Assembly (NCBI GenBank): GCA_003214815.1
Contig: QCLE01000013.1
Span: 1 to 55,981 of the forward strand
Reading direction: 5' to 3'
DNA: 55,981 nucleotides
Source of the DNA: Prochlorococcus sp. AG-412-J13
GTDB taxonomy: Bacteria > Cyanobacteriota > Cyanobacteriia > PCC-6307 > Cyanobiaceae
Position 1 is the first letter of the stretch, and every line of letters starts with the position of its first letter. The notes below the pieces were generated by a model. That model was not told the DNA's origin. It saw only the letters and a list, made by a program, of their open reading frames with translations, and did no database searches. The position numbers and the translations under genes were made by a program. Of this stretch, positions 9,756 through 37,844 are shown one piece after another.

Positions 9756-11465
9756 ATGTCCTATAAAATTGACAGAAATACTTATGCGCAAACTTACGGA
9801 CCCACTACCGGAGATAGAGTAAGGCTTGCTGATACAGAACTTTTTATAGAAGTAGAAAAGGATTTAACTACATACGGAGATGAAGTTAAATTCGGTGGAG
9901 GTAAAGTTATTCGAGATGGGATGGGACAGTCTCAAGTGAGAAGAGTTGATGGAGTTGTAGATACCGTAATTACTAATGCTTTGATCGTAGATTGGTGGGG
10001 AATAATTAAGGCTGATGTGGGTATAAAAGATGGAATGATTTTTGAAATTGGTAAGGCTGGTAATCCTGATATCCAGGATAATGTCGATATTGTTATTGGT
10101 GCATCAACAGAAGTAATAGCTGGAGAAGGCCATATTCTTACTGCAGGTTCAATAGATACCCACATTCACTTTATCTGTCCCCAACAAATTGAGACAGCAT
10201 TAGCCTCCGGAATTACAACCATGTTGGGAGGAGGAACTGGACCTGCAACTGGCACAAATGCCACTACTTGTACTCCCGGTTCTTTTCATATTTCAAGAAT
10301 GCTTCAATCTGCAGAAGCATTTCCCATGAATTTAGGTTTTTTTGGAAAAGGAAACTCAACAAACGAGAGCAATCTTATTGATCAGGTTGAAGCTGGTGCA
10401 TGTGGATTGAAGCTTCATGAGGATTGGGGAACAACTCCCTCTACAATAAATTCTTGTCTTAATGTTGCAGATAAATTTGACGTACAAGTATGTATACATA
10501 CTGATACTTTGAATGAGGCAGGCTTTGTTGAAGATACCATCAACGCTATTGCAGGAAGAACTATACATACTTTTCATACCGAAGGAGCAGGTGGAGGTCA
10601 TGCTCCAGACATCATAAAAATTTGTGGAGAAAAAAATGTTCTTCCAAGTAGTACTAATCCAACAAGACCCTATACGAGGAACACATTAGAAGAACATCTT
10701 GACATGTTAATGGTTTGTCATCATTTAGATTCTAAAATCCCAGAAGATATCGCATTTGCTGAATCAAGGATCAGAAGAGAGACTATTGCAGCTGAGGATA
10801 TCTTGCATGATTTAGGTGCTTTTTCAATTATTGCTAGTGATTCTCAGGCTATGGGAAGAGTTGGTGAAGTAATTACAAGAACTTTTCAAACAGCTCATAA
10901 AATGAAAGTCCAAAGGGGACCGCTATCGCAGGATTCTGATAGAAACGATAATTATAGAGTAAAGAGATATATTTCTAAAGTCACTATTAATCCTGCAATA
11001 GCTCATGGTATTGATAAACATGTTGGGTCTATAGAAAAGGGTAAAATTGCGGATTTGGCATTGTGGAAACCTTCCTTTTTTGCGGTAAAGCCTGAATTAG
11101 TTGTTAAAGGAGGATCTATAGTTTGGTCCCAAATGGGTGATGCAAATGCTTCAATTCCTACTCCAGGTCCTGTACATGGTCGACCTATGTTTGCAAGTTT
11201 CGGTCAATCTCTAATTAAGAGTTCTTTTACCTTTTTAAGTAAAAATTCAATTGATCAAAATATTCCAAATAAATTAGGCTTACAAAAGAAATGTATTGCC
11301 GTAGAAAATACCAGGAATATTAATAAATCACACTTAAAACTTAATAGTAAACTACCAAATATTTCAGTTAATCCTCAAACTTATGAAGTTTTTGCTGATG
11401 GGGAACTTCTTACTTGTGAACCTCTTGATGAAGTCCCAATGGCTCAAAGGTACTTTTTACTTTAG
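9756..11465 (+). CDS. ureC: Urease alpha (catalytic) subunit UreC
   Basis: Catalytic subunit, 569 aa, full length. The dinickel-site residues are all visible: His136 and His138 in THIHF, carbamylated Lys219 in GLKLHEDWG, His248 in CIHTD, His274 in HTEGAGGGH and Asp362 in ASDSQAMGR. The flap Cys321-His322 is in MVCHHL, and Arg341 follows in RIRRET. The enzyme should therefore be active. The stop overlaps the gpgS stop on the other strand by 4 nt. Confidence 0.98.
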
Positions 11466-35640: not shown

Positions 35641-36108
35641 TTATAGGCAGTATTTTTTAATCATTCTTTTTACCTTTTTGGGTTTGTCTTCAAGAATATA
35701 TGCTTCTACTTCTTTTGCATAAGTTCCAGAAAAATTGGAAGTAGAAAACTCTAATGCTCTTCTCTTACTTTGATGTAATTTAGTTTCTAAATTTTTTATA
35801 TCTCCCACTGTTTTATTGTCATTACATTTTTGTACGGCATGAGTTGCTTCATGTCTTAACGCTTTTCTTATTGCCAGTGCTGTTTTGAAATTATCTTTAT
35901 TACGATGCTGCTTTTCATTTCTATAATTTGTTTTCCTTTTTGCATTTTCAGTACATATTATTATTTTATTTTTTTCAAAATTATGTAGTCCTTTGATTTC
36001 TTTGTTTAAAAGACATTCAATTTTATTTTCTTCAACTATGTAGTTTGCTTTTATTAATAATTCAAGAATCTCTTTATCTAATTTGCTTAAAAATATTATA
36101 AATTCCAT
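35641..36108 (-). CDS. Small HEATH-motif putative zinc protease, 155 aa
   Basis: I do not recognise a named family. The sequence carries an HExxH zincin motif (LRHEATHAVQKC, His86-Glu87-His90) in a helix, a preceding strand (KNKIIICTEN near 47-55), and two acids in AKEVEAY (Glu133, Glu135) that could supply the third zinc ligand. The strand-Cys-HExxH arrangement resembles Atp23-type zincins. It lies 8 nt after umuC in the same transcription unit. Function, including any link to UmuD processing, is inference. Confidence 0.7.
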   Translation of the reverse strand: MEFIIFLSKLDKEILELLIKANYIVEENKIECLLNKEIKGLHNFEKNKIIICTENAKRKTNYRNEKQHRNKDNFKTALAIRKALRHEATHAVQKCNDNKTVGDIKNLETKLHQSKRRALEFSTSNFSGTYAKEVEAYILEDKPKKVKRMIKKYCL

Positions 36109-36116
36109 TTTATTTT

Positions 36117-37403
36117 TTACTTTACTATAGTTGGAATCTGTTCTATATCAGTTGTAGATGAGCGACTTAAGAAATTCTTATTCATCGTCCAACTTTTTGG
36201 CGTTTTTGTAATAGCCCATGTAATTGCATTGTTATTAAATCTTTTATTTAATAAATCAATAGTTCTCATGAGATTTGCTGATTTTTTTAGGTCTTTCTGA
36301 GATTTGTAATTGATAACTGATTGCTGTAAATATTCTCTATTAGTTAAATCCTGCATTAAAACACCAGCTTTTGAAAATTTATATTCGGGATTATAAATTT
36401 CTTTGGATAATTCAACTACTATTTTTAAAATGCTGTTTGTGTCGTCTGTTGCATTTGTAAGTTTTCTATGAGCACTTCTTCGATAATTTTGACTTGAATA
36501 TTTACTGGTTCTTGCAAATACTCTAATATTAGATGATTGCAAATTCTGACTTCTCATTTTTTCAGATGCTTTTATTGCGTGAGTCGCCAGTGCTTGAGTT
36601 AAGTCTTCTGATTTTGTGACAGGAGTACCGAAACTCCTGCTTACCTGAATTTCTTTTTTTGATTTCTTGTTTTTTTCTATAGGCAGACATTTATAACCTT
36701 TCAGTTCTAATTGCAATCTTTTTCCTACTATGCCTAGTTTCTTGATGATTTCATTTTCTTCCATATCTCTTAATTCTCGCGCATTCTTAATACCTTTACT
36801 TTGCAGCCAATTAGAGGTTTGTTTCCCGACTCCCCATATCTTATCTACATTAATTCTTTTTAAATAATTATTCTCATTTCTGGCTCTAGCCAAATCAAAT
36901 ATTCCAGCTGAATAATCAATATTTTTAGCTAATTTATTAGCAATTTTTGCTCTTACTTTATTTTCTCCTATTCCTATTGTTATGGTAATCCCTAAATTCT
37001 GATATATTAATGATCTTATGTTTCTTGCCCAAGGATATAGATTTTTATCATTAGGTCTAGAAATTGAGACAAATGCTTCGTCAATAGAATAAATTTCTAT
37101 TTCTTCACAGTAGTTTTTTAGTAAATTCATTAGTCTTCTGCTCATATCGCCGTAAAGCGAGTAGTTTGAGCTTAAGACTGTTACATCTAATTTATTTAGT
37201 GTTTCTTTGACTTTAAAATAAGGAGTTCCCATTTTAATTTTTAAAGCTCGCGCTTCAGGACTTCTCGCAATGATACATCCGTCATTATTAGATAAAATCA
37301 CTACTGGTTTATTTCTCAAATGAGGATTAATATTTTGTTCACATGACGCATAAAAATTATTGGCATCTATGAGAGCTATAGCATCAATACTTGGAATTCT
37401 CAT
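36117..37403 (-). CDS. umuC: Error-prone DNA polymerase V subunit UmuC
   Basis: Y-family translesion polymerase, 428 aa. It begins with the palm motif ALIDANNFYASCE (catalytic Asp), then VVILSNNDGCIIARSPEARAL; the second catalytic acids are in IYSIDEAFVSI. TIGIGENKVRAKIANKLAK is the helix-hairpin region, and the C-terminus has the NKRFNNNAITWA segment of the UmuC tail domain. I see no obvious QLxLF-type clamp motif. It overlaps umuD by 4 nt. Confidence 0.95.
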   Translation of the reverse strand: MRIPSIDAIALIDANNFYASCEQNINPHLRNKPVVILSNNDGCIIARSPEARALKIKMGTPYFKVKETLNKLDVTVLSSNYSLYGDMSRRLMNLLKNYCEEIEIYSIDEAFVSISRPNDKNLYPWARNIRSLIYQNLGITITIGIGENKVRAKIANKLAKNIDYSAGIFDLARARNENNYLKRINVDKIWGVGKQTSNWLQSKGIKNARELRDMEENEIIKKLGIVGKRLQLELKGYKCLPIEKNKKSKKEIQVSRSFGTPVTKSEDLTQALATHAIKASEKMRSQNLQSSNIRVFARTSKYSSQNYRRSAHRKLTNATDDTNSILKIVVELSKEIYNPEYKFSKAGVLMQDLTNREYLQQSVINYKSQKDLKKSANLMRTIDLLNKRFNNNAITWAITKTPKSWTMNKNFLSRSSTTDIEQIPTIVK

Positions 37404-37816
37404 AAATAGCTATGTATTGAATAAATAACAACCCCCCATATCTGTACATCAATATGGTTTTTAAATCTAAAATCAGGATAATTATGATTTTCTGCTTTTA
37501 AATATAATTCATCATTTTTTATAGATAATCTTTTTATTGTAAATTCCCCATCGATCATTGCAATGATAATATTCCCTGGCTTGGCTATTAAACTCTTGTC
37601 TACTATTATTAAATCTTTATCTTTAATTCCTGCATTTATCATTGAGTCACCTTTAACTCTAAGAAAAAAGGTGCTAAACGGATTAGATATTAAATGTTCA
37701 TTTAAGTCAATATTTTCTTCCGTATAGTCATCTGCCGGAGAAGGAAACCCTGCAGATACCGAATCATTTAATAAGGGGATTCTTAACCTTTTAGTAGTTG
37801 AATCAAAGGAATCCAA
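37400..37816 (-). CDS. umuD: UmuD-like S24 peptidase
   Basis: 138 aa LexA/UmuD-type self-cleaving protein that, after trimming, joins UmuC as polymerase V. The Ala22-Gly23 cleavage bond (SAGFPSPADDY), Ser58 in VKGDSM and Lys95 in FTIKRL form a complete catalytic dyad system. There is no N-terminal helix-turn-helix, so it is UmuD and not LexA. It has a TTG start and a LexA-like palindrome 13 nt upstream. Confidence 0.93.
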   Translation of the reverse strand: MDSFDSTTKRLRIPLLNDSVSAGFPSPADDYTEENIDLNEHLISNPFSTFFLRVKGDSMINAGIKDKDLIIVDKSLIAKPGNIIIAMIDGEFTIKRLSIKNDELYLKAENHNYPDFRFKNHIDVQIWGVVIYSIHSYL

Positions 37817-37828
37817 GACTTAAATTAA

Positions 37829-37844
37829 TAGTATATATGTACTA
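37829..37844 (-). promoter_or_regulatory. LexA/SOS-like operator of umuDC
   Basis: The minus strand TAGTACATATATACTA is a 16-bp near-perfect palindrome (7 of 8 positions symmetric). It matches the cyanobacterial LexA pattern (RGTAC-N3-DGTWCB, from memory) with one mismatch. It includes TATACT, which could be the -10 box of the umuD promoter. It ends 13 nt before the umuD TTG. SOS control of this operon is the expected logic. Confidence 0.65.

What the first reader, a model, noticed from the sequence alone, without database searches (positions are those of the whole stretch)
35641..37844. umuD-umuC-zincin: a three-gene SOS cassette
A 155-residue HEATH protein follows umuC by 8 nt in a LexA-box operon. 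Its motif and strand-Cys arrangement resemble Atp23-type zincins. A protease induced with polymerase V could trim UmuD, UmuC or a stalled-fork protein, which I have not seen described.
Basis: partly seen in the sequence, partly recalled or inferred. Interest (0 to 1): 0.7.

Follow-up and report, generated by a model that had tools for sequence, protein, structure and literature searches.

The report
Metalloprotease gene in polymerase V operon
In the ocean cyanobacterium Prochlorococcus, the genes for an error-prone DNA-repair polymerase are followed by a gene for a small predicted zinc protease of an uncharacterised family, and cyanophage-like viruses carry relatives of that protease directly behind the gene for their DNA-replication clamp, which suggests a protease working at damaged replication forks.

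Summary
Window 35641-37844 contains a conserved LexA-type box, umuD, umuC and, 8 nt behind umuC, a 155-residue protein with H86-E87-x-x-H90. The third gene is real: dN/dS about 0.16; all 80 near-relative loci compared keep the catalytic residues and four cysteines. In family genomes it lies directly behind umuC at 81 of 104 places (17 unlinked, 6 undetermined). It fits the gluzincin pattern (HExxH plus E133-x-x-A136); its AlphaFold model is nearest IrrE/PprI, lethal factor and ArdC, at middling Z (6-7.3). The Atp23/M76 resemblance exists only below Pfam's cut-off and only in phage relatives.

Unexpected: viral relatives form a sister clade, and in 108 of 115 distinct viral loci (28 of 29 clusters) the gene directly follows the T4-type sliding clamp gene, usually with a pyrimidine-dimer glycosylase and the clamp loader downstream. 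Two contexts tied to lesions or replication favour a protease at stalled forks over trimming of UmuD, which keeps its own cleavage residues. No function was tested. Zincins in SOS polymerase neighbourhoods are in print for another family (DUF955 with DinB/ImuB-C). New variant of a known kind.

The parts
37829..37844 (.). LexA-type operator upstream of umuD (TAGTATATATGTACTA, palindromic)
   Evidence: 1 mismatch to TAGTACANNTGTACTA (consensus from PMC2921402); 0 of 2000 shuffles as good; conserved in 78 + 21 relatives
37400..37816 (-). umuD-like gene (Peptidase_S24; Ala22-Gly23 cleavage site, GDSM Ser and FTIK Lys retained)
   Evidence: Pfam S24 2.4e-33; NCBIfam Pol V autoproteolytic subunit over cut-off; residues
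36117..37403 (-). umuC-like Y-family polymerase, overlaps umuD by 4 nt
   Evidence: Pfam IMS, IMS_C, DUF4113; NCBIfam PRK03609 1.4e-98, below its curated cut-off
35641..36108 (-). 155-aa predicted gluzincin metalloprotease, 8 nt downstream of umuC; four invariant cysteines C32, C52, C95, C154
   Evidence: phrog_16003 1.9e-10
35839..35853 (-). HEATH (H86-H90), catalytic HExxH motif
   Evidence: H86, E87, H90 in 80 of 80 near-relative loci; invariant in A1 and A2
35701..35712 (-). E133-V-E-A136, presumed third zinc ligand (Glu) on the 'glutamate helix', pattern (E,H)xx(A,F,T,S,G)
   Evidence: E133, E135, A136 invariant in A1 and A2; helix 130-139 in the model; pattern as given in PMC7213743

Best explanation
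The third gene encodes a small cytosolic gluzincin-type zinc protease that is co-expressed with polymerase V when LexA is inactivated. It most likely works at damaged or stalled replication forks, by cutting a protein that obstructs or is held on the DNA there (a DNA-crosslinked protein, or a clamp-bound replication protein), so that Pol V, or in phages the clamp-bound replisome, can proceed. Shown here: gene, operon order, operator sequence, conserved catalytic residues, a model compatible with a gluzincin fold, and repeated linkage to Pol V genes (cell) and to sliding clamp, UV-dimer glycosylase and clamp loader genes (virus). Inferred: co-transcription, zinc binding, proteolysis, cytosolic and fork location, and substrate class.
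For: Linkage to umuC in the same orientation at 81 of 104 places in 101 of 300 family genomes; outside the window's genus 41-365 nt lie between the umuC match end and the zincin match start. LexA-type box conserved. Purifying selection and invariant HExxH...ExEA in near relatives. In viruses, 108 of 115 distinct loci have the T4-type clamp gene directly upstream (54 overlap it by about 1 nt, 44 have a gap of about 2 nt), 93 have the clamp loader within 4 kb and 88 the dimer-glycosylase homologue within 1.5 kb downstream; 28 of 29 clusters at 70% identity have the clamp. The order clamp-zincin-loader is also in isolates S-SRM01 and DSL-LC02; the glycosylase homologue was found only in S-SRM01. 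Pfam confirms clamp (gp45-slide_C), glycosylase (PF03013) and Gp44 lid in L055. Viral-type and cellular sequences split at 100/97 support. Nearest folds include IrrE and ArdC, both DNA-linked gluzincins. UmuD keeps its self-cleavage residues.
Against: No biochemical or genetic data. Fold matches are middling (Z <= 7.3, IrrE and lethal factor tied) and Foldseek has no significant PDB match. 17 of 104 cellular places are not beside umuC (6 by coordinates, 11 judged from the few kb fetched), and most family genomes with a UmuC match lack the zincin (265 against 101 of 300). One viral cluster (L252, L255, L260, L273) has no clamp in the stretch held. More distant relatives in cyanobacteria and T7-like cyanophages have, by eye, signal peptides or a membrane anchor, and two podoviral ones lie beside phage RNA polymerase, so the wider family is not only about DNA. 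Gene order in phages may reflect one old insertion kept by descent, and only the best-scoring viral matches were examined. No DNA-binding domain or clamp-binding peptide was identified.
Confidence: 0.4

Rival explanations
1. Pol V off-switch: the protease degrades or trims UmuC, UmuD' or the Pol V complex (or its contact with the clamp) to end mutagenic synthesis. This is the first reader's substrate idea, recast as turnover rather than UmuD activation.
For: Tight operon linkage with umuDC; proteolysis is a common way of controlling SOS proteins (PMC3765255, passages).
Against: Phage relatives sit next to a clamp and a clamp loader with no UmuD or UmuC in the conserved set. 17 of 104 cellular places are away from umuC. 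UmuD keeps its self-cleavage residues.
Confidence: 0.2
2. Regulatory protease of the IrrE/PprI or ImmA kind: on DNA damage it cuts a transcriptional repressor and so tunes the damage response; in phages it may act on a host or phage regulator.
For: IrrE is the top structural match of the window model (3dte Z 7.3, 84 residues, rmsd 2.7). DUF955 zincins in SOS neighbourhoods were proposed in PMC3765255 (passages). T4 gp45 is also the activator of late transcription (PMC2988020, abstract start in listing), and two podoviral relatives lie beside phage RNA polymerase.
Against: No repressor or HTH gene in the cassette. No DUF955/M78 Pfam hit up to E 1 in the window protein or among the 19 families listed for A2. 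Being inside a LexA-box operon would place it downstream of the switch. The IrrE match is tied with lethal factor (Z 7.3 and 6.7), so it is not specific.
Confidence: 0.15
3. Passenger gene: a general-purpose protease (or counter-defence protease in phages) whose neighbours reflect insertion hot spots and inheritance, not shared function.
For: Unlinked chromosomal copies exist, e.g. near groEL, gpmI and secG genes or behind rplT (names read from the sequences). The stretch between clamp and loader carries other inserted genes in SynMITS9220M01. Distant relatives look exported.
Against: Linkage persists across cellular genera whose zincins are 37-50% identical to the window's and across 28 of 29 viral clusters, often with overlapping start and stop codons. 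Both contexts concern lesions or replication.
Confidence: 0.17
4. Non-proteolytic metal-binding accessory protein that needs the fold, not the protease activity.
For: Precedent in ArdC, whose antirestriction function did not need protease activity (PMC7213743, passages).
Against: The catalytic Glu87 and both His are kept in 80 of 80 near-relative loci, and HExxH together with ExEA is present in 112 of 113 viral proteins, the exception (L357) keeping HExxH but not ExEA.
Confidence: 0.08

Closest known systems
DUF955/ImmA-IrrE (Pfam Peptidase_M78; IrrE/PprI of Deinococcus)
   Same: Gluzincin with HExxH and a downstream Glu; DNA-damage context; nearest fold of the window model, tied with lethal factor. 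DUF955 zincins already noted beside DinB and ImuB-C (PMC3765255, passages).
   Different: No profile match; no room for HTH or sensor domains in 155 aa; neighbours are UmuDC (cell) or clamp and loader (phage); four conserved cysteines.
Peptidase M76 (Atp23)
   Same: Weak local profile matches in phage relatives; in L055 over residues 31-85, which span two cysteines, the HExxH and a third cysteine.
   Different: Below Pfam's cut-off in the members whose scores were shown, best E 0.0029, and absent for the window protein. Atp23 is a mitochondrial intermembrane-space protein (recalled); this one shows no signal peptide by eye.
SPRTN/Wss1 (SprT-like, WLM) DNA-protein crosslink proteases
   Same: Small zinc protease core associated with replication and translesion synthesis (function recalled; PMC6375733 and others seen as listings).
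   Different: Only chance-level matches (SprT-like in 2 of 35 members, best E 0.058; WLM in 3 of 35, best E 0.04). No extra domains in 155 aa.
ArdC antirestriction protein of plasmid R388
   Same: Gluzincin domain aligned at Z 6.0 over 92 residues; linked to ssDNA and an SOS response (PMC7213743, passages).
   Different: [quoted passage not shown] not found by sequence.
PHROG 16003 (unknown function)
   Same: Window protein matches at 1.9e-10 and phage relatives up to 9e-26; same family in the broad sense.
   Different: The PHROG also takes in proteins with signal peptides (by eye), such as L181 and L182.

Membership tests
Gluzincin-type zinc metallopeptidase | HExxH on the active-site helix | tested here: met
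   H86-E87-H90 invariant, on helix 71-95 of the model
Gluzincin-type zinc metallopeptidase | third ligand Glu in a following helix, pattern (E,H)xx(A,F,T,S,G) | tested here: met
   E133-x-x-A136 invariant in A1 and A2, helix 130-139; pattern from PMC7213743
Gluzincin-type zinc metallopeptidase | fold | tested here: inconclusive
   best Z 7.3 to IrrE and 6-7 to other gluzincins; phage model best Z 6.5; Foldseek not significant
Gluzincin-type zinc metallopeptidase | zinc binding and proteolysis | not testable with these tools
   needs purified protein
Peptidase M76 (Atp23) | Pfam PF09768 gathering score (25.2 bits) | tested here: not met
   window: no hit; L055 17.8 bits, L182 18.8 bits; 9 of 35 members of A2 hit, best E 0.0029
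ImmA/IrrE (DUF955, Peptidase_M78) | Pfam profile match | tested here: not met
   no such family at E<=1 for the window protein, nor among the 19 families listed for A2
ImmA/IrrE (DUF955, Peptidase_M78) | fold | tested here: inconclusive
   3dte Z 7.3, 84 aligned, rmsd 2.7; lethal factor within 1 Z
SprT-like / WLM | Pfam profile match | tested here: not met
   window: no hit; 2 of 35 members at best E 0.058 and 3 of 35 at best E 0.04
PHROG 16003 | profile match | tested here: met
   E 1.9e-10 over residues 11-154
umuDC operon under LexA control | S24 UmuD with cleavage site and Ser/Lys, plus Y-family UmuC | tested here: met
umuDC operon under LexA control | LexA operator sequence in front | tested here: met
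   binding itself not tested
umuDC operon under LexA control | co-transcription of the third gene | not testable with these tools
   8-nt spacing only

The most novel reading that the evidence does not exclude
A lineage of clamp- and lesion-coupled proteases shared by cyanobacteria and their phages: the gene lies directly behind the phage sliding clamp and, separately, behind Pol V, and its product clears proteins from damaged template during replication. It would be a bacterial and phage counterpart of SPRTN built on a different zincin family.
Probability: 0.22. Interest if true: 0.85.

Novelty: new variant of a known kind. Interest (0 to 1): 0.62.

Why it matters
Bacterial proteases dedicated to protein-blocked or lesion-stalled forks are poorly known (my own knowledge). 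Here a small, expressible protein with a clear predicted active site is genetically tied to polymerase V in a very abundant marine phototroph and to the replication clamp in related viruses. That makes the question of what is being cut at the fork directly testable with two proteins and one active-site mutant. It also gives a function hypothesis for an unnamed phage family (PHROG 16003) and shows one isolate gene very likely wrongly annotated as serine hydroxymethyltransferase.

Tried and rejected
Co-loss as evidence. 25 of 37 same-genus genomes have the zincin, the same 25 have umuC, and 12 have neither. This looked like a cassette gained or lost as a unit. I rejected it: 11 of the 12 also lack a match to the neighbouring primase gene, which should be essential (the twelfth has it cut at a contig end), and three have the pdhB-like gene within 600 nt of a contig start. 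The stretch therefore seems missing from the held assemblies (inference).

UmuD trimming as the main function: UmuD keeps its own cleavage residues.

Membership of M76, DUF955 or SprT/WLM: profile tests not met. Foldseek against the PDB gave nothing significant for either model; VIA Z values below 8 were used only as hints. Against predicted viral structures, 5 matches had E <= 0.001, all without a stated function. Sequence search of solved structures gave only chance matches.

Plasmids: no match. A Prochlorococcus-type zincin in viruses: the best viral identity with A4 was 40% among the 80 loci kept, so no recent host-phage transfer was seen. The UmuC clamp motif seems changed in the window (LQQSVIN, against QxxLL or QxxLF in many relatives; motif recalled); I drew no conclusion.

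The Rfam 5_ureB_sRNA match was set aside as urease-gene conservation. Literature: no paper on this gene, or on an umuDC-linked or clamp-linked zincin, was seen in searches of the held open-access library; each showed only its top 9-15 titles (48 found none). 'PMM0936' is a locus tag that I guessed from PMM0937 = umuC.
Full report
WHAT IS THERE. The minus strand of the window carries umuD (37400-37816), umuC (36117-37403) and a third ORF (35641-36108, 155 aa) in one direction. umuD and umuC overlap by 4 nt, and eight bases separate the umuC stop from the third ATG. A primase-like gene (dnaG, named from its sequence) converges from the other side and an RlmH-like SPOUT methyltransferase gene lies upstream. 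Pfam and NCBIfam identify UmuD (S24, over the NCBIfam cut-off) and UmuC (IMS, IMS_C, DUF4113; NCBIfam UmuC below its cut-off) but give nothing for the third protein; PHROG 16003, unknown function, matches it at 1.9e-10. Of the 80 nearest named loci, 77 have Prochlorococcus in the title and 3 'Synechococcaceae cyanobacterium'.

OPERATOR. TAGTATATATGTACTA at 37829-37844 differs at one position from TAGTACANNTGTACTA. A search of the whole window with up to 3 mismatches finds 4 sites where 3.2 are expected, so the loose count means nothing, but no shuffle of the upstream stretch gives a site this good (0 of 2000). In relatives the best site upstream of umuD has 1 (74 of 78) or 2 (4 of 78) mismatches in near loci, and 1 (9), 2 (9) or 3 (3) in 21 more distant loci; shuffles reach two or fewer in 0.1-0.2% and three or fewer in 1.4-2.2% (one short locus dropped; loci without a umuD match not counted). 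PMC3091678 (passages) predicts LexA sites for umuCD in several Prochlorococcus strains. PMC2921402 (passages) reports umuC expression that stays high longer under UV in PCC9511. The genome has a lexA over the NCBIfam cut-off.

A REAL GENE WITH A ZINCIN ACTIVE SITE. Across 46 diverse sequences the columns conserved in at least 85% include C32, C52, C95, C154, H86, E87, H90, E133, E135, A136 and E140 (one row, L171, is truncated). In 80 of 80 near-relative loci all of these are kept, without stops; median dN/dS against the window is 0.16, beside 0.13 for umuC and 0.11 for umuD (79 loci each for the latter two). The AlphaFold model from 35 sequences has pLDDT 88.8 and pTM 0.86, with the HExxH helix at 71-95 and a second helix at 130-139 holding E133-x-x-A136. 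A phage relative gives pLDDT 95.1. The (E,H)xx(A,F,T,S,G) pattern of the glutamate helix is that given for gluzincins in PMC7213743 (passages). VIA-align places the window model nearest IrrE (Z 7.3, 84 residues, 2.7 A), then lethal factor (6.7, a tie) and ArdC (6.0); the phage model is nearest lethal factor (6.5) and IrrE (6.4). These values are middling, and Foldseek alone finds nothing significant in the PDB; among predicted viral structures its five matches with E <= 0.001 have no stated function. No signal peptide is seen by eye; no predictor was run.

SYNTENY IN CELLS. In 300 family genomes (drawn from a larger group), 101 have the zincin at 104 places and 265 have a UmuC match. By coordinates 78 of 104 places lie directly behind umuC on the same strand: 24 in the window's genus, the rest with 41-365 nt between the match ends. 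Three more (L140, L152, L160) are linked in fetched sequence, two of them to a umuC that is split. Seventeen are not linked: 6 by coordinates and 11 with no umuC in the few kb fetched (one of these, L174, did not re-match by tblastn, and L170, L172, L173 and L175 are of the viral type). Six are undetermined (one at a contig end, five not fetched). Genomes with a UmuC match but no zincin are common, so umuC does not need it. The apparent joint absence in 12 same-genus genomes looks like an assembly effect.

PHAGES. The first phage hit, Synechococcus phage DSL-LC02, has the gene between the sliding clamp and the clamp-loader ATPase. S-SRM01 is the same with two genes before the loader, one of them the glycosylase homologue. 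Profile searches of IMG/VR found 332, 326 and 242 related stretches, of which the best 80 each were kept. Of 169 loci held, 115 remain after removing repeats (same zincin and same flanks). Of these, 108 have the T4-type clamp gene directly upstream, 3 are cut off, and 4 (one cluster) have no clamp in the stretch held; 28 of 29 clusters at 70% identity have it. The start codon overlaps the clamp stop by about 1 nt in 54 and follows after about 2 nt in 44. 93 have the loader within 4 kb and 88 a pyrimidine-dimer glycosylase homologue within 1.5 kb downstream; Pfam confirms gp45-slide_C, PF03013 and the Gp44 lid for L055. The lower-ranked matches were not inspected, and contigs from different samples may be one virus. 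SynMITS9220M01 has a shorter, divergent relative behind clamp and DenV.

HISTORY. A 66-sequence tree separates 22 viral sequences and four from cell assemblies from the cellular clade at 100/97. The 28 umuDC-linked copies lie in one part of the cellular clade with some unlinked copies among and below them (bootstrap not fully settled; L139, at a contig end, is labelled unlinked there). I infer that the umuDC and clamp contexts arose separately. A profile search of 292 genomes of the phylum gives strong matches (E < 1e-40) in 17, all in the window's family. Of the weaker ones the three inspected (L269-L271) have, by eye, a signal peptide or membrane anchor. Podoviral relatives in Syn5 and P60 also look secreted and lie beside the phage RNA polymerase. 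The cytosolic clade may thus derive from exported enzymes; this is inference.

HOW IT MOST LIKELY WORKS. The common theme of both contexts is lesions met during replication: Pol V in the cell; clamp, UV-dimer glycosylase and clamp loader in the phage. A protease made together with these is best explained as one that removes or cuts proteins at damaged forks. Regulation of Pol V lifetime, an IrrE-like role, a passenger gene and a non-catalytic role remain open. Trimming of UmuD is the least attractive, since UmuD keeps A22-G23, the GDSM serine and the FTIK lysine. Zinc binding, proteolysis and substrate are untested.

NOVELTY. The thought that zincins take part in SOS polymerase neighbourhoods is in PMC3765255 (passages) for DUF955 with DinB and ImuB-C. 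I saw nothing in the held library on this family, on an umuDC-linked zincin, or on a clamp-linked phage zincin (top listings of searches). I rate it a new variant of a known kind.

Noticed in passing
window 9912-10197 (-): Rfam 5_ureB_sRNA match (87.6 bits) lies antisense inside the urease large-subunit gene 9756-11465(+) (named from its sequence); probably coding conservation rather than an sRNA.
   Followed up: partly
L178 6001-6411 (OR032571.1): The zincin homologue of phage DSL-LC02 is annotated 'serine hydroxymethyltransferase', very likely a misannotation.
   Followed up: partly
L272 3667-4116 (Syn5 gp14) and L359 1472-1960 (P60 gp06): HExxH relatives with signal peptides (by eye) directly upstream of the phage RNA polymerase in T7-like cyanophages: perhaps an exported early phage protease.
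   Followed up: partly
L173 2985-3413 and L175 2884-3246: In two cell assemblies a viral-type zincin is convergent with a gene of about 775 residues whose start looks like a P-loop kinase.
   Followed up: no
L166, L168, L169; L146: Unlinked zincin copies sit between the groEL region and gpmI/secG in three assemblies, and behind rplT/rpmI in another; G085 carries two copies. Gene names are read from the sequences.
   Followed up: partly
L252 4445-4876 and 5652-6410; L260 216-647 and 960-1718: Two viral contigs of the cluster without a clamp carry a second, exported-looking HExxH protein downstream of the zincin.
   Followed up: no
window umuC, about residues 358-365: The presumed clamp-binding motif of UmuC reads LQQSVIN in the window, whereas many relatives have QxxLL or QxxLF.
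   Followed up: partly
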